Below, piece after piece: positions 4,361 to 43,909 of a stretch of DNA of 64,000 bases (positions are counted from its first letter, which is position 1; each line of letters starts with the position of its first letter). The notes under the pieces were generated by a model. It searched no databases. It was not told where the DNA came from and saw only the letters and a list, made by a program, of their open reading frames with translations. The DNA lies in contig JAQUGR010000002.1 of assembly GCA_028683955.1 (NCBI GenBank), positions 124,001 to 188,000 on the forward strand. Direction: 5' to 3'. The DNA is from Bacillota bacterium (GTDB lineage Bacteria > Bacillota > TC1). The position numbers and the translations under genes were made by a program.

Positions 4361-4437
4361 GGCGATGTAGCTCAGATGGTTAGAGCGCACGGCTCATACC
4401 CGTGAGGTCGCTGGTTCGATCCCAGCCGTCGCTACCA
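4361..4437 (+). tRNA. tRNA-Met (CAT), elongator type
   Basis: 77 bases with encoded CCA. The acceptor arms GGCGATG and CGTCGCT pair (with G-T wobbles). The anticodon stem CACGG/CCGTG encloses loop CTCATAC, anticodon CAT. The T arm contains GGTTCGATCCC. Sequence and position match Bacillus trnSL-Met1, the elongator type; an Ile2 (lysidine) tRNA also reads CAT at gene level but looks less similar. Its 3' end is the insertion site of the mini-element that follows. Confidence 0.93.
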
Positions 4438-4440
4438 ATA
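4422..4440 (+). repeat. attL-like copy of the 19-bp direct repeat (tRNA-Met 3' end)
   Basis: The 19 bases ending in GTCGCTACCAATA cover the T arm and acceptor 3' strand, CCA and three downstream bases. They recur exactly at 6625-6643. A tRNA 3' end duplicated at the far side of an insertion is the usual footprint of tyrosine-recombinase integration. Confidence 0.85.
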
Positions 4441-4446
4441 TTTTAG

Positions 4447-4480
4447 AACCCCCATTGGCAGTAGCCTTTAGGGGTTTTTT
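4447..4480 (+). terminator. Terminator just inside the mini-element
   Basis: AACCCC (4447-4452) pairs with GGGGTT (4471-4476), with an inner GGC/GCC pair, then six T. It serves the tRNA now, but lies on the element side of the 19-bp repeat. Confidence 0.8.
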
Positions 4481-4720
4481 ATTTACTTTGTGGGAACACT
4501 TTGGGAATATTTATATTATTTTTCTCACAACTAATTTATTTTAGAAGTACTTTAGTTAATATTATTATTTTAAACTTTTGCAAAATCATAAGCAATATAT
4601 GGTCTTAATTGTTTAATAATTGTAATGAATAAGGTTAAGATAAATATTTATCAATATTTTAAATATGATATAATTACAAACATATAAGTAGAGATACAGG
4701 TTGTTTTGGAGGGGATAATT

Positions 4721-6238
4721 ATGATTAGTGAAGAAAATATGACAGTGAATGAATTCGAAGAATATATTAAAAAAACTAGGGAAAACTACCAGTTGGAATA
4801 TAAAGAATCTAGTGGGAGTTTACCAAAATCATTTTGGGAAACATATTCAGCATTTTCTAATACAAAGGGCGGATATATTATTCTTGGTGTAGCTGAAGAT
4901 TATCCGGAAAATAAAATCGTAGGTGTAAATAATCATAATGAAATTACAAAAAATTTATGGGATTTATTATCCAATAAGGAAAAAGTTAGTTATAGTACAA
5001 TAAATAACGAAGATGTTTCATGTATAAATATTAATGAAAAGATTATAGTTTCTATTAAAGTTAATGAAGCTCCAGATTCAAATAAACCTGTATATTTAAA
5101 AAATAATTTTCATAATTCATATATTAGAACAGGTGATGGAGATAGAATGATTTCTGATAACGAATTAAAAATGTTATTTAGAAATTCAAATCCTGAAAGT
5201 GATTTTTCATTGCTTGATAGATTTACAATAGAAGATCTTGATGAATTATCTGTTGTATCATTTAAAGAAAAAGTAAGTGCACGAAATCCAAGTAAAGGTT
5301 ATACCAAATTAAATATTGAGGAATTTCTACTAAATATTGGTGCTGTTACAAAGAATCGTGAAACAGGTAATATTCAAATAAAAAGAGGAACATTGTTATT
5401 TTTAGGAAAATATACATCAATTCGCGAAGTGTATCCATACTATCATTTAGATTATTTTAATAGGAAGGAAAATAATTTACGATGGATTGATAGAGTAGCA
5501 ACAGATGAACCAAACGAATATGAGATGAACATATTTAATTTTTACAATATTGTTTCTGAAAAATTGAAATTAGTTTTGAAAGAGGCATTTCAGTTGGATG
5601 ATGGGAATGAGAGAGTTGGGGTAAGTGATTTTGATGAGTCTATAAGAGAAGCTCTCGTAAATTGTCTAGTACATGCAGATTATTTAAATGAACACCCTTC
5701 AACAAAAATTGAAGTATTCGATGGTTGGTTTCATTTTGTTAATCCTGGGAAAATGTTGGTATCAATAGAAAAATTTACAAGTGGTGGTGATTCACGACCA
5801 AGGAACGAGACTATTATGACAATGTTTAGACATTTAGGAGTTGCGGAAAGACAAGGCTTTGGAGGTTGGCAAATATTTTCATCTGCAGTAAAGAATAAAT
5901 ATCGTATTCCTGAAATTGAAAGTGATTTAGAAAAAACAGATTTAAAAATATGGAATATAGATTTGGCTGATGCATACCCGGAATTATCTAAAAATGAAAA
6001 ATTAGTATATTCTTGTATTGTTAAATCTCTTGGAGCTATTTCTCAAAAAGAAATTCAAACATGTACTAAATTATCCGAGCACCACACACGTAAAGCAATA
6101 AGAAGTCTAATAAAAAGTAATCATGTTCAAATTATAGGAGGTGGTAAAACTACAGCATACTTACCTAAAATTGGTACTGCTGAATCAGTTATGCATATTC
6201 AGTTAATGTTAGAACAACTACAAAAGAAAAGAAAGTAA
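4721..6238 (+). CDS. AlbA_2 (Schlafen-type) / GHKL-ATPase-like / winged-helix protein (COG2865)
   Basis: Predicted DNA-binding regulator of a family common on genomic islands and sometimes linked to defence; no function is proven for this member. Start ATG 4721, with GGAGGGG at 4708-4714; the frame extends to a TTG at 4706 inside that ribosome site. Of 505 residues, about 15-135 form the AlbA_2 domain (LEYKES, FSNTKGGYIILGV, SYIRTGDGD). About 295-410 match the HATPase_c_4 region (REALVNCLVHADY, VNPGKM), and 425-490 a winged helix. It is the only gene of the tRNA-Met mini-element and is followed after 19 bases by the 63-bp repeats, which could be its binding sites. Codons are A-rich, unlike the T/G-rich backbone genes before it. 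Confidence 0.82.
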   Translation: MISEENMTVNEFEEYIKKTRENYQLEYKESSGSLPKSFWETYSAFSNTKGGYIILGVAEDYPENKIVGVNNHNEITKNLWDLLSNKEKVSYSTINNEDVSCININEKIIVSIKVNEAPDSNKPVYLKNNFHNSYIRTGDGDRMISDNELKMLFRNSNPESDFSLLDRFTIEDLDELSVVSFKEKVSARNPSKGYTKLNIEEFLLNIGAVTKNRETGNIQIKRGTLLFLGKYTSIREVYPYYHLDYFNRKENNLRWIDRVATDEPNEYEMNIFNFYNIVSEKLKLVLKEAFQLDDGNERVGVSDFDESIREALVNCLVHADYLNEHPSTKIEVFDGWFHFVNPGKMLVSIEKFTSGGDSRPRNETIMTMFRHLGVAERQGFGGWQIFSSAVKNKYRIPEIESDLEKTDLKIWNIDLADAYPELSKNEKLVYSCIVKSLGAISQKEIQTCTKLSEHHTRKAIRSLIKSNHVQIIGGGKTTAYLPKIGTAESVMHIQLMLEQLQKKRK

Positions 6239-6257
6239 TTAATATCAATTAATTATT

Positions 6258-6474
6258 CGTGAGATATACGTGAGAAATTTATAAAAATATATAAAAAATG
6301 TTTACTTAATAATAAATATACGTGAGATATACGTGAGAAATTTATAAAAATATATAAAGAATGTTTACTTAATAATAAATATACGTGAGATATACGTGAG
6401 AAATTTATAAAAATATACAAAAAATGTTTGCTTAATAATAAATATACGTGAGATATACGTGAGAAAATTATTAA
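6258..6474. repeat. Tandem repeat, period exactly 63 bp, four copies of a CGTGAG(A) pair
   Basis: Copies start at 6258, 6321, 6384 and 6447, each exactly 63 bases apart and almost identical; the last is partial (conserved to about 6466). Every unit opens with two CGTGAG motifs spaced 11 bases, about one helical turn, followed by an AT-rich stretch. 63 bases are about six turns, so all eight motifs face the same side of the helix. All frames contain stops, so it is not coding. It resembles an iteron or operator array. Confidence 0.9.
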
Positions 6475-6624
6475 ATCATATTTCGATAAATATTAATGGT
6501 GTTACATAGAAAGTACAGAAAAAGAACAGTTGTAGCAATACTACCCAATATCAGACAATGGAAACACTAGTATAATAAGGCTTCATATTGTGTAGTATTT
6601 TATAGCATAATATATAAACAGTTA

Positions 6625-6643
6625 CCAGCCGTCGCTACCAATA
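6625..6643 (+). repeat. attR-like copy of the 19-bp repeat
   Basis: Exact duplicate of 4422-4440. The bases upstream do not resemble the rest of a tRNA, so it is a fragment and not a second tRNA gene. Confidence 0.85.
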
Positions 6644-6648
6644 CTATC

Positions 6649-6685
6649 AAACCCTCAGTATCAATAGATATTGAGGGTTTTTGTT
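6649..6685 (+). terminator. Terminator downstream of the attR-like repeat (probable original tRNA terminator)
   Basis: AAACCCTCA (6649-6657) pairs with TGAGGGTTT (6672-6680), followed by a T run. It sits at the same distance from the repeat as the terminator that now follows the intact tRNA. Confidence 0.8.
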
Positions 6686-29129: not shown

Positions 29130-30059
29130 TTAAGCCTTTCCACTACAGCCTAGTACTTCAACTATTTTATGTTCAACTATTTCTCTAATAGCATCTCTAG
29201 CTGGTATTAGGAATTTTCGTGGATCAAAGTTTTTAGGATCAGCATCAAGTGCTTCTCTAACTTTAGCTGTCATAGCTAAACGAAGGTCAGAGTCGATGTT
29301 GATTTTACAAACTGCCATAGTTGAGGCACGTTTTAGCATATCTTCAGGTACTCCTTTAGCTCCGGAAATATCTCCACCGTGTTCATTTATTATTTTGACA
29401 TATTCTGGAACTACTGATGAGGCACCATGTAGTACAATTGGGAAACCAGGAAGTCTTTTACTAACTTCTTCAAGGATATCAAATCTTAATTTAGCTTCTC
29501 CCTTAAATTTAAAGGCCCCATGGCTAGTTCCTATTGCTATTGCAAGAGAATCTACCCCAGTTCTTTTAACAAATTCTTCTACTTCTTCTGGTTTTGTATA
29601 ACTAGCATCTTCTGAATTTACATTTATTTCATCTTCCACTCCAGCAAGTCTACCTAATTCACCTTCTACTGATACGTTTCTAGGTTTGGCATAATCTACG
29701 ACTTTTTTGGTTAGAGCAATATTTTCTTCAAATGATAGATGTGAACCATCGATCATAACAGAAGTAAATCCTCCATCAATACAGGCTTTGCATAGTTCAA
29801 AAGAGTCTCCGTGATCTAAGTGTAATGCAATTGGTAAGTCTGTTTCTATGATTGCTGCTTCTACTAATTTTACTAGGTATGTGTGATTAGCATACTTTCT
29901 TGCTCCTGATGATACTTGTAGTATAAGTGGCGCTTGCTGATTTTTGGCAGCTTCTGTTATTCCTTGTATTATCTCCATGTTATTAACATTGAAAGCACCT
30001 ATGGCATATCCTTCATCATAGGCTTTTTTGAACATTTCTTTAGTGTTTACTAAAGGCAT
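29130..30059 (-). CDS. fba: Class II fructose-bisphosphate aldolase
   Basis: Glycolytic cleavage of fructose 1,6-bisphosphate, zinc dependent. Start ATG at 30059 gives the family beginning MPLVNTKEMF; an ATG four codons earlier is also open, and neither has a strong ribosome site (GGATGTG). 309 residues, with zinc ligands in LHLDHGD near 82-88, VEGELG near 132, and VLHGASS near 207. The promoterless-looking gap upstream holds a terminator of a leader RNA, so expression may be attenuated. Confidence 0.93.
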   Translation of the reverse strand: MPLVNTKEMFKKAYDEGYAIGAFNVNNMEIIQGITEAAKNQQAPLILQVSSGARKYANHTYLVKLVEAAIIETDLPIALHLDHGDSFELCKACIDGGFTSVMIDGSHLSFEENIALTKKVVDYAKPRNVSVEGELGRLAGVEDEINVNSEDASYTKPEEVEEFVKRTGVDSLAIAIGTSHGAFKFKGEAKLRFDILEEVSKRLPGFPIVLHGASSVVPEYVKIINEHGGDISGAKGVPEDMLKRASTMAVCKINIDSDLRLAMTAKVREALDADPKNFDPRKFLIPARDAIREIVEHKIVEVLGCSGKA

Positions 30060-30112
30060 TTTACAACACATCCATTCTATTTAATTTCTTTAATCATTTT
30101 ACCAAATAAAGT

Positions 30113-30147
30113 AAAAAAAGACCACCTAGACATTTGCCTAAGTGGTC
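30113..30147 (-). terminator. Intrinsic terminator in the fba leader
   Basis: On the minus strand GACCACTTAG pairs with CTAGGTGGTC (one G-T) around GCAAATGT, followed by seven T (plus 30113-30119). It ends about 50 bases before the fba start, so transcription into fba must pass it or begin after it. Confidence 0.85.
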
Positions 30148-30345
30148 AGAATGAAAAAGAAAGTTATTTATTTTTTATTCTCTTTGTTTTATATATATTT
30201 TATACTTTGTACTCTTTACTTATTTTATTATTTTACCTCGATTTTTAATTATATATACCTCCTTATTTTATTTTGACCCGTTATTCATATACCACCTCCC
30301 TTTCTTTATGAGACTAGTATAATCCTGATATATGTAAATTGTGTG
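30148..30345 (-). promoter_or_regulatory. fba leader with two mini-ORF signals
   Basis: Minus strand. First, GGGAGGTGGT (plus 30291-30300) precedes ATG at 30288 for a six-residue peptide MNNGSK. Second, AAGGAGGT (plus 30257-30264) precedes, eight bases on, ATT AAA AAT CGA GGT, an open frame of nine codons ending at 30220 with no canonical start. A TATACT-like -10 occurs near 30318. Together with the terminator this resembles translational attenuation, but no regulatory codon run is evident. Confidence 0.45.
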
Positions 30346-30457
30346 AATATTAACGGGAAGTTGCTTGAAATTTCATATCGATAGGTATAGATATTTGATG
30401 TGTTTATGGTATAATTATGTAGGTGGAAACACTAAATAATTATATGGATGTGGATTT

Positions 30458-32179
30458 ATGTTAAATATAGAAAATAAAGAGTCTTTGGAAAAATATTCTT
30501 CTGCTGTCAGTTTGTCAGATATGGAGATTTTTATCTTTCCTGAATTGATGTTCTCATTGGTTTTAGCCAATATTATGTCGCCTGTTATTTGGAAGTGGAA
30601 AGAAGATCCTTGGTTCAAGAACATTGGGAAGATGAATTTAAATAAAAAATTACAAAGAATTAAACAATTTATAATGAATCAATATGATTTTAATCTTGAT
30701 CTTGATACTTGGGGTTTAACAACTAAAGATAAGGAACTAAAAAGATTTGATCAATTTATTGATCTTGATACCTTGAAACAGAGTAATGCTCTTTTTGGCT
30801 ATGAAGGTGATAAATACTATTTTGATATAGATATAAGAAAGCATTTTGGTTTAGATAAGTATACAACTGATTCTATTCCTTACTGGAAGACAGAGACTAT
30901 AGAGTCTATGAGCTCTTTTCATTTAAAGGAAGGTTATCATAAAGGTGCAGGTGAGTGTGTTTCTTTATCTACTATGTACTATGCAGCTCTATTTATTATA
31001 GGTGGTCTGGCTATGGAGGATATTTATATGATAGCAACTCCTCTACATTCACAGAATTTTGTTGATGTAGGAACAGGACAGATTACTAATAATAGAAGAC
31101 TTGTTACTAAGAATATGTGGTTTAATGGTACAGAAATATCTATGAAAGCAAGACGTGCTATTGAAAATGAGCAAATAACTTTTATAGCAAATAATTTAGG
31201 TTATGTGCATAGAATATATAAGGAAGCTACAATGCCTAAGGAAGTTTACCTTGGTTTTAAAGAAAAGATAACAGATTACTTAGAAACTGAAGTTGACTAT
31301 ACTACAATTGCGAGTTTTTTAAGAAATTCTGCCTTGAAACAAATGTGTTTTCAGTTTGAACATGATATTTTTGGAAAGAAACACTTTATAGAAGCCGAGA
31401 AGGTTTTCCCATATGAACATGGTTCTCCATATCTAATTGGAACTTCAACTCAAAATAAGTTGTTGGAAGAAATTGATGCTATGGAGTTTTATCAAGAGCC
31501 TATCGAGGGAAGAATAAATCTAAAAGATATTGAAACTGCTTTTGTTAAAAGTGGTTTAAAGGTTAGGGAATTACAAGCCCATCCTGAAGTAGCGGAGAAT
31601 ATTGTTGCTAAAGTATGTAGTAAGGAAAAAGAATTAATTAATGATTTAATAGATTTTTGTAAAATTGAACCTCAAATTCCTAATATTGAAGATAAAGATT
31701 TTGTGGAAACAGAACCTATTTTATTGACTAATGAGATGACTAGGGAAGAGATTATAGATTATCTTGAAAATAGACGAGATAATAGTGAGGTTGCTGATTT
31801 AGCATTTTTGGCGTATAGAGATATTAAAGGCAAGGCTTATTTAAAGGCTTTTATGAAAGCTGCTATAGAAAGAAATCCTGTTGCTATTGTTGGGGCTGAA
31901 GATATGAGTATTGATGAGGCTTTTAGATATTTAGATAATTTAGGTAAAGACTCTATTTATAGTGATAATAGACTTGCTCAACCTGACGAGGTATGGAACT
32001 TTAGTACTGGTGATGGTTTAGAAAAAGGTATTGCTCTTCTTGATATTGCCAGAAGCAGAGGTTTGGAAAGCTGGTTGGAAACTGTGCCTGGAAGTGTTAA
32101 AATTATAGTTGAAAATAAAATTTATGAATTTATGGCTAATAAATATGTAGATATTTGTAAGGAAGATTCAAATATATAA
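30458..32179 (+). CDS. Large protein with transglutaminase-like core, function unknown
   Basis: 573 residues, no signal peptide or membrane helix, so cytoplasmic. Residues about 160-215 resemble the transglutaminase/cysteine-protease core: GAGECVSLSTMYYAAL with Cys167 at a helix start, then TPLHSQNFVDVG with His197 and an Asp three residues after it. The remaining N- and C-terminal regions (including about 230-420) match nothing I recognise. It is followed after 11 bases by a MoCF-domain protein, so the two are probably cotranscribed. The catalytic assignment is an inference from motif spacing only. Confidence 0.55.
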   Translation: MLNIENKESLEKYSSAVSLSDMEIFIFPELMFSLVLANIMSPVIWKWKEDPWFKNIGKMNLNKKLQRIKQFIMNQYDFNLDLDTWGLTTKDKELKRFDQFIDLDTLKQSNALFGYEGDKYYFDIDIRKHFGLDKYTTDSIPYWKTETIESMSSFHLKEGYHKGAGECVSLSTMYYAALFIIGGLAMEDIYMIATPLHSQNFVDVGTGQITNNRRLVTKNMWFNGTEISMKARRAIENEQITFIANNLGYVHRIYKEATMPKEVYLGFKEKITDYLETEVDYTTIASFLRNSALKQMCFQFEHDIFGKKHFIEAEKVFPYEHGSPYLIGTSTQNKLLEEIDAMEFYQEPIEGRINLKDIETAFVKSGLKVRELQAHPEVAENIVAKVCSKEKELINDLIDFCKIEPQIPNIEDKDFVETEPILLTNEMTREEIIDYLENRRDNSEVADLAFLAYRDIKGKAYLKAFMKAAIERNPVAIVGAEDMSIDEAFRYLDNLGKDSIYSDNRLAQPDEVWNFSTGDGLEKGIALLDIARSRGLESWLETVPGSVKIIVENKIYEFMANKYVDICKEDSNI

Positions 32180-32190
32180 AGAGGTGAAGT

Positions 32191-33165
32191 ATGAAAATCA
32201 TTCCTATCGAAGAGGCTGTTGGTAAGCAATTATCTCATGAGTTAACTGGAATTATTCCAGGGAAGAGTGAGAATATTACTTTTATGAGAGGTTATATTGT
32301 AAAGGTTGAAGATGTTGAAACTTTAAAAAACATGGGTAAATATCATGTAAATGTTATAGATGACAATAGTGATTTGATTCATGAAAATGATGGTGCTTTA
32401 ATGCTAGCTAATAAAGCAATTGGCAAAGGTGTTACTTTAAGTGAACCAAAAGAAGGTAAAGTTCATGCTTATGCTAATGAAAAGGGTATTTTTATTTCGA
32501 ATATAAGTAAGCTGGAGGAAATTAATCTTATAGATGGTATTAAAATTTCAACAAAAAGGAAGTATAGTGTAGTTGAAGCTGGTCAAAAGGTGACTACTTT
32601 TGGTATTACTCCTTTAGAAATAGAAAAAGATTTAATGAATTTTGGTCTATCTTTGATAGAAGAACCTTTTATTTCTGTTGCTCCATTTAGTAGTTTGAGA
32701 ATTGGTATTATAACTACAGGAAGTGAAGTTTATGAAGGTAGGATTAAGGATGCTTTTATGCCTTATCTTAAGGGGAAATTAGAGGCTTTTGATTTTAATG
32801 TTATTGAGCAAACTATTGTTCCTGATAATCAAGAGATTATTAAAGGGGCGATTGATGATTTTATAAAGAGAGACTTTGAATTATTATTTTTGACTGGTGG
32901 ATTATCTGTTGATGCTGATGATTTTACTTTAAAAACAGTTAAGGAGCATGAAAAGGTTGAAATTGTTATTTATGGTTCTCCGGTTCTTCCTGGTGCTATG
33001 TTTATGGCAGCATATTATGATGGTAAGGTCCCTTTGATTGGATTACCTGCTGGATTACTTAGGGGTGGAAACTCAATTCTTGATTTTGTATTACCATTAT
33101 TAATGGCTAAAGTAAAGGTAACTAAGAATTTCATTGCTAGTTTAGGTGATGGAGGGTTGCTTTAA
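32191..33165 (+). CDS. Molybdopterin-binding (MoCF) domain protein
   Basis: 324 residues. The first 165 contain a SAF/hammerhead-like region; 170-315 form the MoCF domain, with IGIITTGSEVYEGRI, LFLTGGLSVDADDFT and LPGAMFMAAYYDGKVPLIGLPAG, as in MoeA, MogA and CinA. It is shorter than MoeA and lacks its full domain set. GAGGTG ribosome site. Its stop overlaps the stop of the convergent minus-strand gene by 4 bases with no terminator. Confidence 0.82.
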   Translation: MKIIPIEEAVGKQLSHELTGIIPGKSENITFMRGYIVKVEDVETLKNMGKYHVNVIDDNSDLIHENDGALMLANKAIGKGVTLSEPKEGKVHAYANEKGIFISNISKLEEINLIDGIKISTKRKYSVVEAGQKVTTFGITPLEIEKDLMNFGLSLIEEPFISVAPFSSLRIGIITTGSEVYEGRIKDAFMPYLKGKLEAFDFNVIEQTIVPDNQEIIKGAIDDFIKRDFELLFLTGGLSVDADDFTLKTVKEHEKVEIVIYGSPVLPGAMFMAAYYDGKVPLIGLPAGLLRGGNSILDFVLPLLMAKVKVTKNFIASLGDGGLL

Positions 33166-33806
33166 CTAAAGTAGTTAAGTATTTTCCTAACAGCTAATCG
33201 ATTGATTTCATTTATATATATTTTTGGAACTAAAGGATTTATTTTCTTTAGTTCTTTTTTTTGTGTAAAATTCAAACCCTTATAAATAGTGGGTAGCTTT
33301 ATATTTTTACAAGAATCTATTTTGCTTTGTTCTGCATAAATAAGGGTTTTTATAGGTTGATCTGCTAGATATTTAGAATATTTTGCCTTAATAAGAAGAT
33401 ATTTCTTGTTGTTGCTCAAAAGATTAGTGAGATTATCTAAATCTTTTGAATGTTCAAAGTATAAAATTCTTAATTCTTCACGGTTATCATAAAAATTTTC
33501 AGGCTTTATAATATCTTTTTTTAAATGAGGCAGAAGAAACTTAGAAAATTGGAATTTTAATTCATGATTTTGGTGATAAAAGATATGTGTATTACCAGTA
33601 TCTTTAAGATTAATATTGTTTGTTATGATTATAAGGTTTTCTGGAATGTGGAATGAGGATGTATCAATGTTATTCAATTCATAAATGATAAGGTTGTTTA
33701 CCTCCCAACCTATAAAGTCTTCCACATGCCAGCCTAATAGTTGTAAGCCTTTTGATACCTTTTCTTTTAAAGTTTCACTTCCGATATAATAAATTATTTT
33801 GTTCAT
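33162..33806 (-). CDS. Protein of unknown function
   Basis: 214 residues, no membrane helix, rich in Asn, Lys and Ile. Strong GGAGGTG ribosome site before ATG, so it is translated. Alternating hydrophobic strands (KIIYYIGS, NLIIYELNN, NLIIITNN) in the first 65 residues suggest a receiver-like or Rossmann-like fold, but no phosphorylation motif is visible. It is divergent from the tad operon with a 100-base gap, so a regulatory role in pilus expression is possible but unsupported. Confidence 0.6.
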   Translation of the reverse strand: MNKIIYYIGSETLKEKVSKGLQLLGWHVEDFIGWEVNNLIIYELNNIDTSSFHIPENLIIITNNINLKDTGNTHIFYHQNHELKFQFSKFLLPHLKKDIIKPENFYDNREELRILYFEHSKDLDNLTNLLSNNKKYLLIKAKYSKYLADQPIKTLIYAEQSKIDSCKNIKLPTIYKGLNFTQKKELKKINPLVPKIYINEINRLAVRKILNYFS

Positions 33807-33907
33807 GCTGCACCTCCAATTTCTATTATATTCAGGAAATGTAAGATAGAAGTTAAAAATATGAAATTATTTATTTTAGGGATAAAAATTATTTAGAGGT
33901 GGTTGAA

Positions 33908-34837
33908 TTGGTGGGGAAAATAGTTGAAGTTGGTATTTTTACTGATGGGGATTTATTTATTAAATCTATTGGGGAAGAATTAATAAAAGAAAATCATAAA
34001 AATATTAACTTTAGTTTTTTTGATGAACAGAGTTTAATAGAGCCAGATTATTTAATTTTGAATTATAAAAATAAAGGGAAGGTAAATAAGTGTAATGCTA
34101 TTTTTTTAAGTGAAAATTTTAATGATGGTGGAATTTTCCTTTTCCAAGCAAAAGGAAAAATTAAGAAGGAAATCTTAAATATTATAAGGGCAGAAGACAT
34201 GGTAAATGAATTTGAGGTGATTTCTGGAATATCTCCATATAATCTAGCTTATGCAACTCTATTTAATCATTTTTTAGCTTCCCGACTAAGCAAGGAAGGT
34301 TTAAAGGTTTGTTTTCTTTCCTTGAATATTAATTTTCCTTATAAGTATTTAGGGTGGAATTTAGATAATAAAGGTTTACTTAAAGCAATATACTATTATC
34401 AAAATAAGGAAAAATTTAATCCGGGTATAATTAGCAAACATCAAAGTGATAATTATTACTTTGTTGAGATGGATTTGAAAATTAATGAAGTTGATGGGAT
34501 AAGTGAAGACTTTATTAAAATGCTATTAGAATTTTTCAAAACAGAAGAATTTAGATATGTAGTTTTTGATTATGGAATTTTTTATTGGCAAATATCAAAT
34601 TTTAGTGATTCAATATTCTATCTTCAAAATAATCAAAATACTTTATTACGGGAAATGGAAAATAATAATCTCTCAAATATGAATACTTTCACAAATCAAG
34701 GTAGAAATGAAATTATTGAAATAGATGATTTGGATAATGTATATGTGATTAAAAATGGGAAATTAAGTTTCAATTGTGAAATGGAGGATATAAAAGGTTG
34801 GAAAAGGAGCTTAAAGAGGAAATTATTGAAGAATTAA
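33908..34837 (+). CDS. tadZ: TadZ/CpaE-like protein with degenerate P-loop
   Basis: Localises the Tad pilus machine in characterised systems. Start TTG 33908 is chosen for GAGGTGG at 33896-33902; GTG codons at 33899 and 33911 are alternatives. About 309 residues: an N-terminal atypical receiver region, then a ParA-like domain near 105-235. The deviant Walker A is replaced by ISGISPYNLAYATLFNHF, without the GK(T/S) lysine, so ATP hydrolysis is unlikely. Recognition depends on operon position before tadA and on the SRLSKEGLKVCFLSLN strand. Confidence 0.65.
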   Translation: MVGKIVEVGIFTDGDLFIKSIGEELIKENHKNINFSFFDEQSLIEPDYLILNYKNKGKVNKCNAIFLSENFNDGGIFLFQAKGKIKKEILNIIRAEDMVNEFEVISGISPYNLAYATLFNHFLASRLSKEGLKVCFLSLNINFPYKYLGWNLDNKGLLKAIYYYQNKEKFNPGIISKHQSDNYYFVEMDLKINEVDGISEDFIKMLLEFFKTEEFRYVVFDYGIFYWQISNFSDSIFYLQNNQNTLLREMENNNLSNMNTFTNQGRNEIIEIDDLDNVYVIKNGKLSFNCEMEDIKGWKRSLKRKLLKN

Positions 34838-35970
34838 GAGATAAAGGAATAATGAGTGAAATAGAAATAAAAGATTTTATCATTGACAAGGTTATAGATA
34901 AAAGCAGAGAAATTGAGCTTGATATTGGCTCTAAAAATGAACTAATCAAAAATATATTTAATAGTATATGCCGTTATGATCTTCTTCAAATCATGCTGGA
35001 TAATAAAGAAATTGATGAAATTATGGTTAATGGACCTAATACTATATTTTATGAGATGAAAGGGAAAATATATAAAGAAGAGAGAACTTTTGAAAATATT
35101 GAACAATTAGAGAATATTATACAAACAATTGTTGGAAAAATGAATAGGATGGTTAATCAAGCAAATCCTATAGTTGATGTGAGATTAGGAGATGGTTCGA
35201 GAGTTAATGTGGTTTTAAAACCAGTTGCTATTGATGGACCAATTCTAACTATAAGAAAGTTTAATAAAGATTTTTTGGATATGAAGGATTTACTTTTAAA
35301 AGAATCTATTAATAAGGAAGTTATAGATTTATTAAAAGTATTAGTTAGATATAAATACAATATATTTATTAGTGGAGGTGCTAGTTCTGGTAAAACTACC
35401 TTTTTAAATTTATTGGCTGGTTTTATACCAAAAGATGAGAGGATTGTTACAATTGAAGATTCTGCGGAATTAGCTATTAGAAATTTAGAAAATATAGTTA
35501 GACTTGAAGCCAGACAGTTAAACCAAGAGAGTATAGATTCAAATATTGATATTCGTAGTTTAATTAAAACTGCTTTAAGAATGAGACCTGACAGAATAAT
35601 AGTTGGTGAAGTAAGAGGTCATGAGGCTTTTGATATGTTAACTGCTATGAATACAGGTCATGAAGGATCTATGTCTACAGGGCATGCTAATAGTGCAAAG
35701 GACATGTTATTACGTCTCTTAACTATGGTAATAGTTGGTAATAATTTAAAAGAAGAGGTAGGGATTAATCTAATTAAAACAGGGATTGATATTATTGTCC
35801 ACTTACAAAGACAAAAAGTTGGGAGGAAAGTTATTGGAGTTTATGAAATAGAGAAGGAGGAAGAAGGGTTGGTTTTAAATACATTATTTGAAAGAAATAG
35901 TTCAGGGAAGTTAACTAGAAAAAATAATATTAAATATCTGGAGAAGTTAAATGTCTATTCCGAAAATTAA
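34798..35970 (+). CDS. tadA: Tad/Flp pilus assembly ATPase TadA (CpaF)
   Basis: Hexameric secretion ATPase that powers pilus extension (and, in Caulobacter, retraction). TTG start, GGAGG ten bases upstream, overlapping tadZ by 40 bases. 390 residues, with N-terminal helices, then Walker A GGASSGKTTFLN near 196-207, the Asp box ITIEDSAEL, Walker B RIIVGEVRGHEAFDML and His box STGHANSAKDMLLRL. All catalytic motifs intact. Confidence 0.93.
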   Translation: MEKELKEEIIEELRDKGIMSEIEIKDFIIDKVIDKSREIELDIGSKNELIKNIFNSICRYDLLQIMLDNKEIDEIMVNGPNTIFYEMKGKIYKEERTFENIEQLENIIQTIVGKMNRMVNQANPIVDVRLGDGSRVNVVLKPVAIDGPILTIRKFNKDFLDMKDLLLKESINKEVIDLLKVLVRYKYNIFISGGASSGKTTFLNLLAGFIPKDERIVTIEDSAELAIRNLENIVRLEARQLNQESIDSNIDIRSLIKTALRMRPDRIIVGEVRGHEAFDMLTAMNTGHEGSMSTGHANSAKDMLLRLLTMVIVGNNLKEEVGINLIKTGIDIIVHLQRQKVGRKVIGVYEIEKEEEGLVLNTLFERNSSGKLTRKNNIKYLEKLNVYSEN

Positions 35971-36697
35971 TCTTAATAAAATAAATTCTAGATTGTTTCA
36001 ATTTATTCTAATTTGTTTTTTTATATCATTATTGTATTTTATTTTACTAACAGAAAATATTATTTTTGCCTTTATTATAAGTTGTTTAACTATATTTTTA
36101 GTTCCATATTTCCAAAGATTAATAATTAAAAGGACCAAATATAGGATGATAATAGAATTTCAAGATTTCATTTATCTATTAAATGGTAGTTTACAAGGTG
36201 GTAATTCTTATGATAATGCTTTAGTTGAAACTAAATTTAATTTATTTAGTATGTATGGGGATGATACTTTACTTGGGAAAGAATTAGAAAAAATTATTTA
36301 CTGGAATAAAATTGGGATAGGTTATGAAAAAGGGTTTTTAATGTTAGAAGAGGAATATAAGATTGGATTTTTTAAGGAGTTTTCTACTGTTTTAAACATA
36401 ACCAGGAATAAAGGGGGGAATTTTAAAGAAGTATTGGAACAAACTAATAATACTTTAAGCGAAAGGTTGGAGATTGAAAGAGAAATTGGGACTTTGTTGG
36501 CAAAGCAAAGAATTGAAGTTTTAATGCTTAGAGTAATTCCTTTTATTATGATGTTAGGGTTAAAGTTTATTTATCCAGAAATGATTATATTTCTAACTAC
36601 TAGTATATTAGGGGGTATAACTTTCTTTGGAGTTGGTTTGATATTTGCTTTATCTTTTTATATTAGTAATAAGTTGATGGAGGTAGTATGGGATTAG
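35951..36697 (+). CDS. tadB: Tad pilus inner-membrane platform protein TadB-like
   Basis: T2SSF-type membrane platform protein. 248 residues, two helices near the start (about 17-52), a cytoplasmic domain with GGSYDNAL-like GGNSYDNALVE and RNKGGNFKEVLEQT, then two helices at the end. Overlaps tadA by 20 bases and tadC by 10. AGGAG-like ribosome site GGAGAAG. Confidence 0.85.
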   Translation: MSIPKINLNKINSRLFQFILICFFISLLYFILLTENIIFAFIISCLTIFLVPYFQRLIIKRTKYRMIIEFQDFIYLLNGSLQGGNSYDNALVETKFNLFSMYGDDTLLGKELEKIIYWNKIGIGYEKGFLMLEEEYKIGFFKEFSTVLNITRNKGGNFKEVLEQTNNTLSERLEIEREIGTLLAKQRIEVLMLRVIPFIMMLGLKFIYPEMIIFLTTSILGGITFFGVGLIFALSFYISNKLMEVVWD

Positions 36698-37467
36698 TAT
36701 TTTTTGTTTATCTTGGTATAAGTATATTGTTTTTGTTAAAAGATATTCCCATTCCATATGTGATTAAATGTAAATATCGGTTCCCGGTTGGTGTTAAAGA
36801 GAAAGAAGTTTTGAAGTATTATAATGGTGTTTATAATCTTTCAAAGAATATTAAAGAATATGAAAATCAGGTTTTTAAAAATATCATTTTATTTATACCT
36901 TTAGTATTTTTTGGTTTTATAACAGATGCTGGGTTGGCTTTTTTAGCTTTAGGCTTATTATTTTTTGCTTATAGATTTAAATATTTTCAAATTAAAAAAA
37001 AAGTGGAAAAAAGGCGTATAGAATTTTTTAAAGAATATCCTGGTTTTTTAAATAGTTTAAAACTATATTTACAATCTGGGCTGACTTTGGAAAATGCTTT
37101 AGCAACATATTTTTCATGTGGGAGTCCGGGTTATTATCTTAATTTAATAAAAACGGGATTAGATGGTATTGGTTTGGGTCTTAATAGAAAGTCAGCTTTT
37201 CTTGAAATTATATTGGGTACTAGAGAAAGGGAACTAATAAAATTGGTTAATTTTTTTGTTCAATTTTATCAAGTGGGCTTTGAAGGTAATAGTTATTTAA
37301 TACAACTGGGTGATGAAGCTTGGAAATTGAAGAAGGAGACAATAAAACGGATAGCAGAGGAAGGTTCGGCTAAAATGGTAATACCGATGATGTTAATCTT
37401 TATTGGTGTTAGTATTTTGGTTTTAATACCTAGTGTTTATTCTATTATTAATGGAAATGGGTTTTAG
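36688..37467 (+). CDS. tadC: Tad pilus inner-membrane platform protein TadC-like
   Basis: Second platform protein. 259 residues with hydrophobic segments near 1-16, 68-95 and at the end (about 229-255), and a T2SSF-like middle with LQSGLTLENALATY. GGAGG before ATG. The tadB/tadC pair is diagnostic for Tad-type rather than classical type IV pili. Confidence 0.83.
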   Translation: MGLVFFVYLGISILFLLKDIPIPYVIKCKYRFPVGVKEKEVLKYYNGVYNLSKNIKEYENQVFKNIILFIPLVFFGFITDAGLAFLALGLLFFAYRFKYFQIKKKVEKRRIEFFKEYPGFLNSLKLYLQSGLTLENALATYFSCGSPGYYLNLIKTGLDGIGLGLNRKSAFLEIILGTRERELIKLVNFFVQFYQVGFEGNSYLIQLGDEAWKLKKETIKRIAEEGSAKMVIPMMLIFIGVSILVLIPSVYSIINGNGF

Positions 37468-37475
37468 GAGGCTTT

Positions 37476-37682
37476 ATGTTTAAAAAGATATTTATTAAAT
37501 TATATAATGTTTTAAAAAAGGATAGAGGAATAGAGACTATTGAGGTAGTTATAATATTGGTTATTCTTGTTGCTTTGGGTTTTGCTTTTAGAAATGTAAT
37601 TACTGGTTGGTACAATCATTTAGTTAGTGGGATTGATGGTCAAATAATGAACGGCTCGAGTGAAGTTCCAAATGGTTTATAG
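37476..37682 (+). CDS. Flp-type pilin (type IVb, small)
   Basis: Major pilin candidate: 68 residues with a basic leader, the prepilin-like cleavage region RGIETIEVVI (Glu five residues after the Gly) and a hydrophobic helix to about residue 42. AGGAGG ribosome site. No prepilin peptidase (TadV/CpaA) lies in the operon, so processing must use a protein encoded elsewhere. Confidence 0.8.
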   Translation: MFKKIFIKLYNVLKKDRGIETIEVVIILVILVALGFAFRNVITGWYNHLVSGIDGQIMNGSSEVPNGL

Positions 37683-38325
37683 TGATGAAAGGGGGAGCTC
37701 TACTATTGAAGGGGCAATAGTATTTCCAATTATATTACTTTTAATTTTCAGTTTATTCTCTCTTACTTTTAAAATATTTAATAAGTTTTCTGTAATTAAT
37801 AGTCTTGGTCATGCCTTAAGGGTTGGTTCTTATAGTTGGTATAATGATAAGAAACTTTATGATGATATTATCTATGACTTTGATGGAACTAAGGCTACTA
37901 TTAAAAAACTGAAACAGACAAATGTTCTTTATAAAAGTATTTTAAAACCAGTTTATTCTGAGAGTAAGGCATCCTTTTCTTTATCTAATTTAATTCTGTA
38001 CCGAAGTATTAATGGCAAGGTGGATAATATTGAGGGAAAATACCCAATATACAGGGGTGCTATGTTTGTTAGAGGGAGTCAATATGCTAAGGAATTATTG
38101 GAGGATGCATTTAGTAATTTAGAGGAAAATATGCCTGATAGTCAGGAAGTTTATATAGTGGATGATGATATTGATGAGTATGAGTATGATCGTGTATATC
38201 ATCTTTATAGTGATTGTAGTTATTTGAAGAATGGCTATAAGAGCAAAACTACTCTAGGTGAAGGGAGGGGGATGGGATTTAGAGTTTGTAGAATATGTCT
38301 GGCCAGAAAAACAGGTATGGACTAA
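37672..38325 (+). CDS. TadE-like pseudopilin with a C-terminal cysteine cluster
   Basis: Minor pilin or assembly factor. An ATG at 37672 is taken as start; a GTG at 37660 is also possible, and both overlap the pilin gene. About 217 residues: TadE signature GSSTIEGAIVFPIILLLIF at the N-terminus, then an exported domain. The last 45 residues contain YHLYSDCSYLKNG and FRVCRICLARK, i.e. three cysteines and a histidine spaced like the small zinc-binding motif YHxxxC...CxxC. This is uncommon in TadE proteins. Confidence 0.78.
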   Translation: MVYSDERGSSTIEGAIVFPIILLLIFSLFSLTFKIFNKFSVINSLGHALRVGSYSWYNDKKLYDDIIYDFDGTKATIKKLKQTNVLYKSILKPVYSESKASFSLSNLILYRSINGKVDNIEGKYPIYRGAMFVRGSQYAKELLEDAFSNLEENMPDSQEVYIVDDDIDEYEYDRVYHLYSDCSYLKNGYKSKTTLGEGRGMGFRVCRICLARKTGMD

Positions 38326-38362
38326 TGGTATATTTAAAGGTAAAATAGTAAAAGAGGTGAGT

Positions 38363-38548
38363 ATGATGTACCAAGAAGGAATGATTGTAATTATGAAAAA
38401 ACCTCATCCTTGTGGTGGATATACTTGGAAGATTTTAAGGGTGGGTGCAGATTTTAGAATTGAATGTACTACTTGTAAAAGAAGTGTTATGATATCTAGA
38501 GAGAATTTCACTAAACGTGTTAAAAAAATATTGTCAGAAGAAGAGTAG
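38363..38548 (+). CDS. DUF951 family protein
   Basis: 61 residues, start ATG 38363 (or the next codon, also ATG) after AGAGGTGA. Motifs GMIVIMKKPHPCGGYTWKILRVGADFRIEC and TCKRSV show the paired cysteines of DUF951, a small conserved Firmicutes protein of unknown function that often lies near rpsF-ssb-rpsR. Here only ssb follows, after 10 bases. Confidence 0.85.
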   Translation: MMYQEGMIVIMKKPHPCGGYTWKILRVGADFRIECTTCKRSVMISRENFTKRVKKILSEEE

Positions 38549-38558
38549 GAGGAAGAAA

Positions 38559-38969
38559 ATGTATAATAAGGTAACTTTAGTTGGTAGATTAGTTAGGGAT
38601 CCTGAGCTTAGGTATACTCCATCAGGTAAAGCTGTTGCTAATTTCACATTGGCAGTGGACAGAGGTTTTAAAGATAAAGAGACTGGTGAAAGCACTGCGG
38701 ATTTCATCAAGATTACTACTTGGGATAAGCAAGCTGAAAATGTTGGCAATATCTTAAAAAAAGGTAGATTGGTTTTGGTAGATGGTAGTATTAGAACTGG
38801 TAGTTATGAAAAAGATGGACAAAAAGTTTATACTACTGATGTTCAAGCTAGCAGGGTTGTATTCCTTGATAGAGATAAATCTTCAGAAAGTTCTGGGGGC
38901 GGCGGAAGTAATGTAGAAGATGTATTCTTCCCAAGTCAAGGATTAGAGGATGATGACGTACCATTTTAG
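38559..38969 (+). CDS. ssb: Single-stranded DNA-binding protein
   Basis: Coats ssDNA in replication and repair. Start ATG 38559 with AGGAGG at 38547-38552; the open frame upstream overlaps DUF951 and is not coding. 136 residues: OB fold (MYNKVTLVGRLVRDPELRYTPSGKAVANF...), glycine/serine linker, acidic tip DDDVPF that binds partner proteins. The usual neighbours rpsF and rpsR are missing. Confidence 0.97.
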   Translation: MYNKVTLVGRLVRDPELRYTPSGKAVANFTLAVDRGFKDKETGESTADFIKITTWDKQAENVGNILKKGRLVLVDGSIRTGSYEKDGQKVYTTDVQASRVVFLDRDKSSESSGGGGSNVEDVFFPSQGLEDDDVPF

Positions 38970-39003
38970 GTATAAGGAAGTTATAAATATTTAGTTATGA
39001 GTA

Positions 39004-39041
39004 AGTCAGTAACAATTAAAAATTGTTGCTGACTTTTTAAT
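39004..39041 (+). terminator. Terminator after ssb
   Basis: AGTCAGTAACAAT (39004-39016) pairs with ATTGTTGCTGACT (39022-39034) with one G-T pair, then five T. Confidence 0.85.
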
Positions 39042-39147
39042 ATATAGTTAGATAATATCTCTATTTGATAGAATAATATAGTGTCTGTTTTAATAAATAC
39101 TGATATAATATTTAAAATGACTAAATTAAGGGAGAATAATCTAAATT

Positions 39148-39762
39148 ATGGATAAATTGTTAGATGGAATTATTAATTTTAAAAATAAAGACTTTAAAGA
39201 TCATGAGAAGTTATTTGCAGATTTAAAAAATATACAAAAACCTCATACTTTATTTATTACCTGTTCGGATTCTAGGATTGATCCTAATATGATTACAGGT
39301 TCTCTACCTGGGGAATTATTTATTATTCGTAATGTTGCTAATATTATTCCTCCAAACAGGGAAACTTCTGATTATGTGGCTACTACTTCTGCGGTGGAGT
39401 ATGCTGTACAGGTTTTAGGTGTTGAAAATATTATTGTATGTGGTCATTCTAATTGTGGAGGCTGTGCAGCTAGTCTTTATTCTATGGATATAATTAACGA
39501 GTTACCTCATACTAGTAAATGGTTGGAGTTATTGGATAATGTTAAAGAGAAAATAATGAAGAGCAATAAGAAGGAAGCTTGGGAGTGGATGTTAGAGCAA
39601 GCTAATGTTGTTGAGCAAATTAATAATTTGAAGACCTATCCCTTTATCTCAGAGCGTATAAAGGATAAGACGCTGAGTGTTAGTGGCTGGTACTATATTA
39701 TTGAAACTGGGGAAGTATATATATTTGATAATGAAACTAAGGCTTTTATGTTATCTAATTAG
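39148..39762 (+). CDS. Beta-class carbonic anhydrase
   Basis: Interconverts CO2 and bicarbonate. 204 residues with zinc ligands in TCSDSRID (Cys and Asp near 39-41) and HSNCGGC (His and Cys near 99-102). RNVANIIPP matches the family. GGGAGAA ribosome site. It stands alone; bicarbonate supply for carboxylating anaerobic enzymes such as the KorAB complex nearby is plausible. Confidence 0.93.
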   Translation: MDKLLDGIINFKNKDFKDHEKLFADLKNIQKPHTLFITCSDSRIDPNMITGSLPGELFIIRNVANIIPPNRETSDYVATTSAVEYAVQVLGVENIIVCGHSNCGGCAASLYSMDIINELPHTSKWLELLDNVKEKIMKSNKKEAWEWMLEQANVVEQINNLKTYPFISERIKDKTLSVSGWYYIIETGEVYIFDNETKAFMLSN

Positions 39763-40353
39763 TTAGGATATATCAGTATTTATGAAAATGCAGTTTTTTA
39801 ACATAATTACATCACACAATATACATTAATATTAGATAAATTAATATTAATTATAAAATAGTTATAGATAATAATAAAAATCCTAAGAAATATAATTTTA
39901 TTAAAAATTTAAATAAGAGATTAAGAAACCATCATAAAATTATTGGTATGATCTTGATTAGAACTGGTTTAGTTCATGGGTTGTACTAAATTGAACCTGT
40001 ACTAAGTCTTAATTTGGGTTTTATCTATTTTACTTAGTTTGTCTTTTATGTATAGGGGGTCATTTTCTAAATATAAGGGGTGGATGTGTAATTTACTAGT
40101 GTAGCTACTTATAGTTCTAATGATATTACCAATTCTAATAATAGTGACTTGGATCATGCTTTGATTAAATAAAAAAACTGAAAAACATCAAAATTTTTAT
40201 GCGATTGTTGTAAAGAAGTCCTCAAAGAAGGGCTTCTTTTTATATATATAATTAGTAAATTAAAATATTTAGACGTATAATGTAACTAACGAATTAAAGC
40301 AGAAAAAAAGATAGAAGATACTAGAATAGAATATAAGACAGGAGGTAACATAA
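39763..40353. other. 590-base intergenic stretch with terminator and a possible gene remnant
   Basis: Mostly AT-rich and non-coding. On the plus strand a 22-codon frame ending at about 40171 (tail NDITNSNNSDLDHALIK, stop TAA) is preceded by stops and has no ribosome site. It could be the tail of a lost gene. A terminator follows at 40212-40243. The korA ribosome site AGGAGG is at 40341-40346. I see no complete gene. Confidence 0.4.
40212..40243 (+). terminator. Orphan terminator upstream of korA
   Basis: AAAGAAGTCC (40212-40221) pairs with GGGCTTCTTT (40230-40239), then a T run. It is 450 bases from the carbonic anhydrase stop. Confidence 0.75.
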
Positions 40354-42000
40354 ATGAACACAACATCAATAATGATAGCCGGACAAACAGGATATGGCAT
40401 ACACGAAGCAGGAATCCTAGTAGGCCGACTACTTGGAGAAATGGGATACAACATCTACATGATGGACGACTACCCATCACTAATAAGAGGAGGCTATCAG
40501 TTTGTAATCATAAGAGCCTCTCAAGAGAAGATCGCAGCACATTATGACCAAGTAGATATACTCCTAGCTATGAACCAAGACGCCATCAATCACAATAAAA
40601 ACAAAATAAATGAAAAAACAATCCTAATATACAATGCAGATAAAGTAAACGCCGAAAAAGGAGTAAGTCTCTCCATAAATGAAATACTAAAAGAAGAAGA
40701 AACCCCAGGAAAAGAACTATACTTAATGATAGGAGCCCTAGCAAAAACATTAGACCTACCTTGGATAGTAATAGAAAAAGTCTTTGAAAAACACGAAAAA
40801 GATGATTTGAAAATAAAATTGAAAGCAACAGCCAGAGGATATAAAAGCACAAAAACATCAGAACCACTAACAAAAGGAACAGTAAAGAAACTACCACTAA
40901 TTAGTGGATCACAAGCAATAAGCATAGGACTACTTAAAGCAGGCTTAAATGCTCTAGTAGGATATCCAATGACTCCAACATCACCAATACTCGAATTTAT
41001 GGCAAAATATGAAAAAGAATTAGGCATACACGTAGTCCTACCAGAAAGCGAAATTGCAGTAATAATGATGGCCCTAGGCTATTCCTATATGGGCAAAAGA
41101 AGCGCAGTAGCCACCTCAGGAGGAGGCTTTAGTCTAATGGTAGAGTCTCTGGGACTAGCCGCACAGTCAGAACTTCCAATAGTAATAGTAATGGGACAAA
41201 GAGCAGGACCATCAACAGGAATGCCAACCTATACAGCTCAAACAGACTTAAACTTTGTCCTACATTCAAGTCAAGGAGAATTTCCAAGACTTATAGTAGC
41301 ACCAGGAGATGCAGAAGAAGGAGCATATTGGTCAGCAGTAGCCTTAAATAAAGCCTGGAAATATCAAATACCAGCTTTTATCCTAACCGACAAAACCCAC
41401 TGTCTAGGCTACTTTACCTATGATGAAGAAACAATCCCTAAAATTAGTAAAGAAGAACCAGCACTATGGGATGGAAATGGGGAATATATGAGATATAAAA
41501 ATTCAGAAGATGGAATATCCCCACTCGCCTTCCCACCATTAAAGGATCAGGTAGTAAAGGCAACAGGATATGTGCATGATCAATTTGGCATAACAACAGA
41601 AAACCCAGATATTGCCAAAGAAATTTCAAATAAACGCTTTAAAAAAGAAAGATTCTTAGCAGAAGAAATGAAAAATTATGAAACAGTCAAGACTTATGGG
41701 ACAGGAAAGACAGCACTACTATGTTGGGGATCTAACAAAGGAGTTTGTCTAGAAACAGCAAAGCTATTAGACCTAAAAGTAGTACAAATGGTTATGCTCT
41801 CACCTTTCCCTAAGGAAGCTTTAAATAAAGCACTTGATGGTGTTGACCAACTAATAAATGTTGAATGTAATGCAGAAGGACAACTGGGAATTCTATTAAA
41901 ACAAAATGGATTTAGGGTAGATGAAAATGTACTTAAATATGATGGGAGAGCATTTTCAGTTGAAAAACTAGTAGAAGAAGTTAAGAAGGTGATAAAATGA
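40354..42000 (+). CDS. korA: 2-oxoacid:ferredoxin oxidoreductase, fused gamma-alpha subunit
   Basis: Oxidative decarboxylation of a 2-oxoacid (2-oxoglutarate type most likely) to acyl-CoA with ferredoxin reduction. 548 residues: gamma domain at 1-185 (IMIAGQTGYGIHEAGILVGRLL), alpha domain from about 188 (SGSQAISIGLLKAGLNALVGYPMTPTSPI) to the end. AGGAGG before ATG. The first kilobase is extremely A-rich on the coding strand, which eases off toward the 3' end. It overlaps korB by 4 bases (ATGA). Confidence 0.9.
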   Translation: MNTTSIMIAGQTGYGIHEAGILVGRLLGEMGYNIYMMDDYPSLIRGGYQFVIIRASQEKIAAHYDQVDILLAMNQDAINHNKNKINEKTILIYNADKVNAEKGVSLSINEILKEEETPGKELYLMIGALAKTLDLPWIVIEKVFEKHEKDDLKIKLKATARGYKSTKTSEPLTKGTVKKLPLISGSQAISIGLLKAGLNALVGYPMTPTSPILEFMAKYEKELGIHVVLPESEIAVIMMALGYSYMGKRSAVATSGGGFSLMVESLGLAAQSELPIVIVMGQRAGPSTGMPTYTAQTDLNFVLHSSQGEFPRLIVAPGDAEEGAYWSAVALNKAWKYQIPAFILTDKTHCLGYFTYDEETIPKISKEEPALWDGNGEYMRYKNSEDGISPLAFPPLKDQVVKATGYVHDQFGITTENPDIAKEISNKRFKKERFLAEEMKNYETVKTYGTGKTALLCWGSNKGVCLETAKLLDLKVVQMVMLSPFPKEALNKALDGVDQLINVECNAEGQLGILLKQNGFRVDENVLKYDGRAFSVEKLVEEVKKVIK

Positions 42001-42845: not shown

Positions 42846-42866
42846 AAATTTAAGGAGTGATTGTAA

Positions 42867-43331
42867 ATGTCCTATACTGTTGATTTTAAAAAAATTTCTA
42901 CAGTTGGTTTAGAGACTTCACCAGTATTTGAAGCTCTTGCAGGCTTACGAGCTAATGAAGCAAGATATTTTATGAATAAATACAAACATGAATTTATAGT
43001 AGTACCAGCTAGTGAAAGTAAAGAAACCCTTGAGTATGTGAAAAGAATATTAAAAGAAGAAAGAGACATAGAATTTTCGGCAAAACCTCTGGAAACATCT
43101 AGCTTTCAAGTAGAAAATATTAAATTCACCTATGTTTTTTATGAGGATGGTTTAGCGATAAATGTTATGTACGCTTTAGATGATAAAAAGAAAAGAGCAG
43201 TAGGTTTTAAGCTGTCAGATGGGATGGAAATACCAAAAGAGCTAGAAAACAAATTTAAATTTGCTCGTCAAAAGTCTAAACTTGCTGGAACTATAAGGGG
43301 ATCATTTTTTGTAATTAAAGGTGAATATTAA
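42867..43331 (+). CDS. Protein of unknown function downstream of korB
   Basis: 154 residues, no signal or membrane segment, mixed alpha/beta by eye (VDFKKISTVGLETSPVFEALAGL at the start; GFKLSDGMEIPKELENKFKF later). AAGGAG ribosome site 7-8 bases before ATG. Position 21 bases after korB suggests cotranscription. I do not recognise the family. Confidence 0.65.
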   Translation: MSYTVDFKKISTVGLETSPVFEALAGLRANEARYFMNKYKHEFIVVPASESKETLEYVKRILKEERDIEFSAKPLETSSFQVENIKFTYVFYEDGLAINVMYALDDKKKRAVGFKLSDGMEIPKELENKFKFARQKSKLAGTIRGSFFVIKGEY

Positions 43332-43348
43332 TAAAGGAGTTGAAATAA

Positions 43349-43843: not shown

Positions 43844-43852
43844 TTAATAATG

Positions 43853-43888
43853 AAAAAGAAGATATGACGCTGTCATATCTTCTTTAAA
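43853..43888. terminator. Bidirectional terminator between the plus-strand genes and selC
   Basis: AAAGAAGATATGAC (43855-43868) and GTCATATCTTCTTT (43872-43885) are perfect arms around GCT. On the minus strand it ends selC. Confidence 0.9.
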
Positions 43889-43909
43889 TCTATAAATTAT
43901 TAATGTTTT

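What the first reader, a model, noticed from the sequence alone, without database searches (positions are those of the whole stretch)
4422..6643. Integrase-less mini-element in tRNA-Met carrying one AlbA_2/GHKL gene and a phased repeat array
The last 16 bases of the tRNA plus three more recur exactly 2203 bases downstream, the usual mark of site-specific integration. The enclosed DNA has only one gene, an AlbA_2 (Schlafen-type) plus GHKL-like plus winged-helix protein, and an array of 63-bp repeats. There is no integrase, so it may be a satellite mobilised in trans, with the repeats as origin or recognition array and the protein as its regulator or a defence cargo. COG2865 proteins on islands are known; such a minimal tRNA-bounded unit with a dedicated repeat array is not one I know.
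Basis: partly seen in the sequence, partly recalled or inferred. Interest (0 to 1): 0.8.

Follow-up and report, generated by a model that had tools for sequence, protein, structure and literature searches.

The report
Integrase-less Schlafen mini-island in tRNA-Met
A 2.2-kb insert with no integration enzyme sits at the end of a transfer-RNA gene and carries one gene, a bacterial relative of the antiviral Schlafen RNases, plus a precisely spaced DNA repeat array; the same kind of array accompanies this gene in prophages, satellites, plasmids and chromosomes, which suggests the gene and its array work together as one (probably anti-phage) unit.

Summary
tRNA-Met (4361-4437) is followed by a 2203-bp unit between two exact 19-bp copies of its 3' end, holding one gene and a 63-bp array. 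Three congeneric genomes have empty sites; the native tRNA terminator lies beyond the right copy. The left end keeps a direct repeat typical of tyrosine-integrase ends, but the integrase is missing. It is therefore a CIME-like unit: attL and attR without recombinase. The gene is a bacterial Schlafen (SLFN/AlbA_2 RNase core with the catalytic Glu/Glu/acidic triad, GHKL-like domain, winged helix).

The array is not a mobility part. Pairs of ~9-bp boxes at 11-bp steps, in helically phased clusters, flank 40 of 51 members of this protein clade (6 of 85 outside it; 37 of 337 control ORFs), in prophages and satellites beside the integrase, on plasmids and in chromosomes. Box sequence differs between members but tracks protein similarity. 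I read it as the DNA-binding platform of the winged helix that controls the RNase; this is inferred. A second integrase-less unit lies at mnmG in Enterococcus lemanii, with an empty allele in a congener. Mobilisation in trans is possible but unproven. Interest 0.6.

The parts
4361..4437 (+). tRNA-Met (CAT), integration target
   Evidence: ARAGORN; Rfam RF00005
4422..4440 (+). attL core: last 16 bases of the tRNA plus ATA
   Evidence: exact 19-mer, second copy at 6625; single in congeners
4447..4480 (+). element-borne terminator next to the tRNA
   Evidence: differs from the native tRNA terminators of G001/G003/G004, which match the one right of attR
4489..4508 (+). TGTGGGAACACTTTGGGAAT, putative arm-type integrase sites (direct repeat), 54 bp from the tRNA CCA
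   Evidence: a 19-mer differing by one base occurs in 34 IMG/VR contigs; in 31 it lies 58-59 bp from a CCA and in 29 a convergent tyrosine integrase starts 66-85 bp further
4648..4674 (+). predicted promoter of the gene (TTATCA/TATAAT)
   Evidence: consensus scan only; no boxes here
4721..6238 (+). bacterial Schlafen: SLFN/AlbA_2 core (21-142), GHKL-like HATPase_c_4 (329-406), C-terminal winged helix (about 420-485)
   Evidence: Pfam; PDB sequence matches incl. SLFN14; AlphaFold2 pLDDT 86, best fold match 3lmm
6250..6475 (+). phased array: four doublets of the box TACGTGAGA, 11-bp step, 63-bp period
   Evidence: TRF; four sites in genome, none in congeners
6559..6568 (+). possible right-end arm site TGGAAACACT
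   Evidence: one mismatch to the left-end unit; four such sites in 64 kb; weak
6625..6643 (+). attR core
6650..6683 (+). native tRNA-Met terminator displaced by the insertion
   Evidence: alignment with empty sites of G001, G003, G004

Best explanation
A CIME-like unit: DNA that a tyrosine integrase once inserted at the 3' end of tRNA-Met, now reduced to attL, the arm-like repeat, one cargo gene with its array, and attR. The cargo is a bacterial Schlafen, probably an anti-phage RNase effector: a Schlafen core that cleaves tRNA or other RNA when activated, a GHKL-like ATP-binding domain that may sense or gate, and a winged helix that binds the phased boxes side by side, one per helical turn. 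Binding to the array would control its level and/or hold it inactive until infection. Shown: insertion, empty alleles, missing integrase, conserved catalytic residues, conserved gene-array pairing and phasing. Inferred: integrase-mediated origin, RNase activity, defence, array binding by this protein, control by the array.
For: Insertion. Left end like tyrosine-integrase attachment ends. Schlafen triad: E21 in 41/42, E26 in 42/42, E59 (E or D) in 42/42, aligned to SLFN14 residues 206/211/249; the matching SLFN13 residues are needed for tRNA cleavage (PMC5862951). Schlafen RNase-minimal kinase-wHTH proteins are described as backup suicidal effectors in BREX systems (PMC12839542). Relatives sit next to integrases in satellites and prophages, in a type I RM operon and on plasmids. 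Array pairs with the protein clade: 40/51 vs 6/85 outside, Fisher p = 5e-18, and 37/337 control ORFs. 66 of 86 short steps are 11 bp; inter-cluster gaps are phased, Rayleigh R 0.68, none of 2000 nulls as high. Box similarity tracks protein similarity, Mantel r 0.35, p 0.002. Precedent for wHTH subunits on 9-bp direct repeats with one turn per subunit: BldC, as described in PMC11963761.
Against: No experiment. In the window the array is downstream of the gene and not at the predicted promoter, so plain operator autorepression does not fit this copy. The Mantel test does not single out the winged helix over other domains. No intact integrase-bearing parent of this element was found. The one-base-different arm repeat comes from prophages at tRNA-Ser/Leu, not tRNA-Met. 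PADLOC has no good model for this protein.
Confidence: 0.6

Rival explanations
1. An active satellite-like mini-element: it never carried an integrase and is excised and inserted in trans by a helper integrase that recognises its retained arm sites.
For: Intact att copies, arm-like repeat and intact gene; a second clean integrase-less single-gene unit at mnmG in E. lemanii with an empty allele in a congener; a possible third in Clostridiaceae JG1575 (140-bp repeats at 84%, only two copies in that genome).
Against: No matching arm sites near the two non-Xer-like integrases examined in this genome or at the congeners' tRNA-Met loci; no identical unit elsewhere; the unit sits where prophages carry it beside int, so simple loss of the rest explains it; E. 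lemanii ends show no such arms by eye.
Confidence: 0.22
2. The array is the element's own origin, packaging or recombination site, and the protein its replication or mobility regulator.
For: The array lies about 150 bp from attR; winged-helix proteins such as RdfS control excision (PMC11963761).
Against: The same arrays go with the gene in prophages and satellites that have their own replication genes, on plasmids, and in chromosomes without any integrase within about 6 kb.
Confidence: 0.07
3. The boxes act as RNA: repeated motifs in the transcript are bound or cleaved by the Schlafen domain as feedback.
For: Boxes of the TCGTGA type examined keep the same orientation relative to the gene, upstream or downstream (by eye); the AlbA_2 fold is RNA-related.
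Against: Spacing of 11 bp and phased gaps over 40-110 bp are a DNA-helix signature; many distal clusters lie 120-170 bp or more upstream of the start codon.
Confidence: 0.1
4. A housekeeping transcriptional regulator (COG2865 label) with an operator array and no defence role.
For: COG2865 is annotated as a regulator (from memory); the wHTH is MarR/ArsR-like.
Against: Patchy distribution (7 of 398 phylum genomes at E<=1e-60), mobile and defence contexts, conserved RNase triad, no other box doublets in the genome.
Confidence: 0.1

Closest known systems
CIME (cis-mobilizable element; definition in PMC5704250)
   Same: attL and attR kept, integration genes lost, at the 3' end of a tRNA gene
   Different: only one cargo gene in 2.2 kb; kinship points to prophage or satellite cargo rather than an ICE; no evidence of cis-mobilisation
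Bacterial Schlafen RNase - minimal histidine kinase - wHTH proteins (COG2865; PMC12839542; preprint 10.1101/2025.07.24.666596 cited there, not readable here)
   Same: same three-domain layout and catalytic residues; defence contexts
   Different: stand-alone ~500-aa clade with a dedicated phased DNA array, which the BREX/type I RM-associated ~600-690-aa members examined here lack
Streptococcus satellite phages Javan593, 301, 341, 416, 72, 757
   Same: homologous gene (30-37% identity) between CI-like repressor and integrase, with the same kind of box array
   Different: complete 11-15-kb satellites with integrase and replication genes; array upstream of the gene
BldC-type cooperative wHTH assemblies on direct repeats
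   Same: about 9-bp direct repeats bound one subunit per helical turn
   Different: small regulators without enzyme domains; comparison is by geometry only
PICI / PICMI phage satellites (PMC6092414, PMC10803314)
   Same: small chromosomal island
   Different: no integrase, replication or packaging gene here

Membership tests
CIME | retains attL and attR | tested here: met
   19-bp copies, empty alleles
CIME | no integration or transfer genes | tested here: met
   single ORF; no PF00589 hit in the window
CIME | derives from an ICE or IME | tested here: inconclusive
   no parent found; relatives point to prophage or satellite
CIME | can be mobilised in cis after accretion with another element | not testable with these tools
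   needs experiment
Bacterial Schlafen (SLFN-GHKL-wHTH) | SLFN/AlbA_2 core with catalytic Glu/Glu/acidic triad | tested here: met
Bacterial Schlafen (SLFN-GHKL-wHTH) | minimal histidine-kinase-like domain and C-terminal wHTH | tested here: met
   PF13749; PDB and fold matches; G1-like motif is NPG, not the usual DxG
Bacterial Schlafen (SLFN-GHKL-wHTH) | RNase and anti-phage activity | not testable with these tools
   needs experiment
Phage satellite (PICI/PICMI) | own integrase | tested here: not met
Phage satellite (PICI/PICMI) | replication or packaging genes | tested here: not met
   one ORF in the unit
Prophage remnant | phage structural or replication genes left | tested here: not met
   none in the unit

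The most novel reading that the evidence does not exclude
Single-gene Schlafen-plus-array units form a class of integrase-less mobile defence elements, moved by integrases of resident prophages that share their arm sites, with the phased array acting as a DNA platform that holds the RNase inactive until infection.
Probability: 0.15. Interest if true: 0.85.

Novelty: new variant of a known kind. Interest (0 to 1): 0.6.

Why it matters
Bacterial Schlafens are newly linked to anti-phage defence and how they are held in check is open. A dedicated, helically phased DNA array conserved across a protein clade in several phyla, with box sequence tracking the protein, makes this testable with one purified protein and one DNA fragment. 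The tRNA-bounded single-gene unit is the smallest natural context for it found here and, together with the mnmG case, asks whether such units can move without an integrase of their own.

Tried and rejected
Single-protein scan of IMG/VR found no relative; exact box and exact end patterns found nothing there. NCBIfam had no model, PADLOC only a weak one. Rfam found only the tRNA. Looked for an integrase relic in six frames of both ends: none, only a possible 10-residue tail NIPKVFPQSK that overlaps the arm repeat. Tested whether boxes track the winged helix rather than other domains: not resolved. Repeats around L049 and L134 were rejected as clean att sites because they look like local duplications or dispersed repeats; those of L125 and L126 are the box arrays themselves. 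The arm-repeat scan used a 19-mer that differs from the window by one base; the exact window version gave no hit.

Full report
What is there. The window lies in a 1.59-Mb genome (contig C7, 124001-188000). tRNA-Met (4361-4437) is followed by a 2203-bp unit bounded by CCAGCCGTCGCTACCAATA at 4422 and 6625. The unit holds one ORF (4721-6238, 505 aa) and a 63-bp tandem array (6250-6475). No tyrosine-integrase domain was found in the window.

It is an insertion. Congeners G001, G003 and G004 carry the same S1-domain gene and tRNA-Met with a single copy of the repeat. Their native terminator, which directly follows the tRNA, matches the one to the right of attR in G000, while the terminator beside the tRNA in G000 is a different, element-borne one. 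These are sister species, so the test is between species, not strains.

The left end looks like an integrase attachment end without its integrase. TGTGGGAACACTTTGGGAA starts 54 bp from the start of the tRNA CCA. A 19-mer that differs by one base occurs in 34 IMG/VR contigs. In 31 of them it lies 58-59 bp from a CCA (tRNA-Ser or tRNA-Leu where ARAGORN was run and the tRNA was in the locus), and in 29 a convergent tyrosine integrase begins 66-85 bp further. In the window that place holds only an AT-rich spacer and the gene's promoter region. A single possible right-end site, TGGAAACACT at 6559, is weak. G000's own prophage at tRNA-Arg has the same order (tRNA, terminator, direct repeat, integrase) but another repeat sequence, so it is not an obvious helper.

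The protein. Pfam gives SLFN_AlbA_2 and HATPase_c_4; a family profile matches solved Schlafens, best SLFN14, and COG2865-type structures 2kyy and 3lmm. The AlphaFold2 model (pLDDT 86) has 3lmm as best fold match. E21, E26 and E59 are conserved in 41/42, 42/42 and 42/42 (E or D) members and align with SLFN14 206, 211 and 249; the equivalent SLFN13 residues are needed for tRNA cleavage (PMC5862951). Schlafen RNase-minimal histidine kinase-wHTH proteins are described as backup suicidal effectors in BREX systems (PMC12839542); that paper cites a preprint on bacterial Schlafens in anti-phage defence that I could not read.

The array belongs to the gene. Closest relatives lie in Streptococcus satellite phages between the repressor and the integrase, on Lactobacillus iners and Staphylococcus plasmids, in prophages directly upstream of the integrase, and in chromosomes with no integrase within about 6 kb. 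Near all but a few there are pairs or runs of ~9-bp boxes: TTATCTTGAGA, TTATCTCGTGA, TTCGCGTGA, AATACGGTAGA, GCGTGTGCGAAT and others, TACGTGAGA in the window. In a tree of 136 proteins the window's clade of 51 (support 0.98) has 40 positives by an automatic test against shuffles, and five more by eye; outside it 6 of 85 are positive. The test's background on 337 other ORFs in the same loci is 37, about 11%. Within clusters 66 of 86 short steps are exactly 11 bp, and gaps between clusters are phased (R 0.68 near 11.2 bp; none of 2000 uniform draws as high). Box similarity and protein similarity correlate (Mantel r 0.35, p 0.002), without favouring one domain. The array is usually upstream but lies downstream in the window, L111, L121 and L210 and on both sides in L120, L125 and L126, so it is not simply the operator of an upstream promoter.

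Mechanism. Most likely the winged helix lines up on the boxes, one per helical turn as described for BldC (PMC11963761), and this controls the amount or activity of the Schlafen RNase. Binding, RNase activity and defence are inferred. In upstream-array members the best promoter-like sites often lie between the clusters, which would suit autorepression, but the window's promoter-like site has no boxes.

How the unit came to be. Two clean cases of attachment-flanked, integrase-less, single-gene units were found: this one and Enterococcus lemanii L123, where a 1955-bp unit sits at the 3' end of mnmG between 110-bp repeats (98% identical), with an empty mnmG / O-acetylhomoserine sulfhydrylase-like junction in congener G402 (gene names by eye). 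L120 is a weaker third. Deletion of everything but the cargo from a prophage or satellite (a CIME-like product, PMC5704250) is the economical reading; mobilisation in trans is possible and untested.

Limits.

Noticed in passing
L260:3088-13483 (G000:C7:~311,000-321,500): Defence island beside a tyrosine integrase in the same genome: MkoA/MkoC-like helicase, type IIG restriction-methyltransferase, a 384-aa protein matching PADLOC candidate PDC-S50 (another AlbA_2-like N-terminus by eye) and a GmrSD/DUF262-like protein.
   Followed up: partly
L259:1-16511 (G000:C7:~30,000-46,500): Prophage-like region inserted at tRNA-Arg with the order tRNA, terminator, direct repeat (GGTGTCA type), 362-aa integrase.
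   Followed up: partly
L041 (G004 tRNA-Met locus): Congener G004 has TTGACACACTTTTGACACAC just after its tRNA-Met terminator, like a left-end arm repeat of another element at the same tRNA; no second tRNA copy was found.
   Followed up: partly
L128:1-5829: The contig has identical 99-bp ends, so it is probably a circular 5.73-kb element carrying the same Schlafen gene and box runs.
   Followed up: partly
L127:861-9085: In Gemella the Schlafen gene sits inside an apparent type I restriction-modification operon, between hsdM-like and hsdS-like genes (by eye).
   Followed up: no
L046:~7283 and 11976: 31-bp direct repeat (CTAAATCCCTTTTAATCGCTTGCCTGCTGAT) flanks the repressor-Schlafen segment of satellite Javan593; similar repeats in L047 and L119.
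   Followed up: no
window:43910-44006: tRNA-SeC on the minus strand.
   Followed up: no
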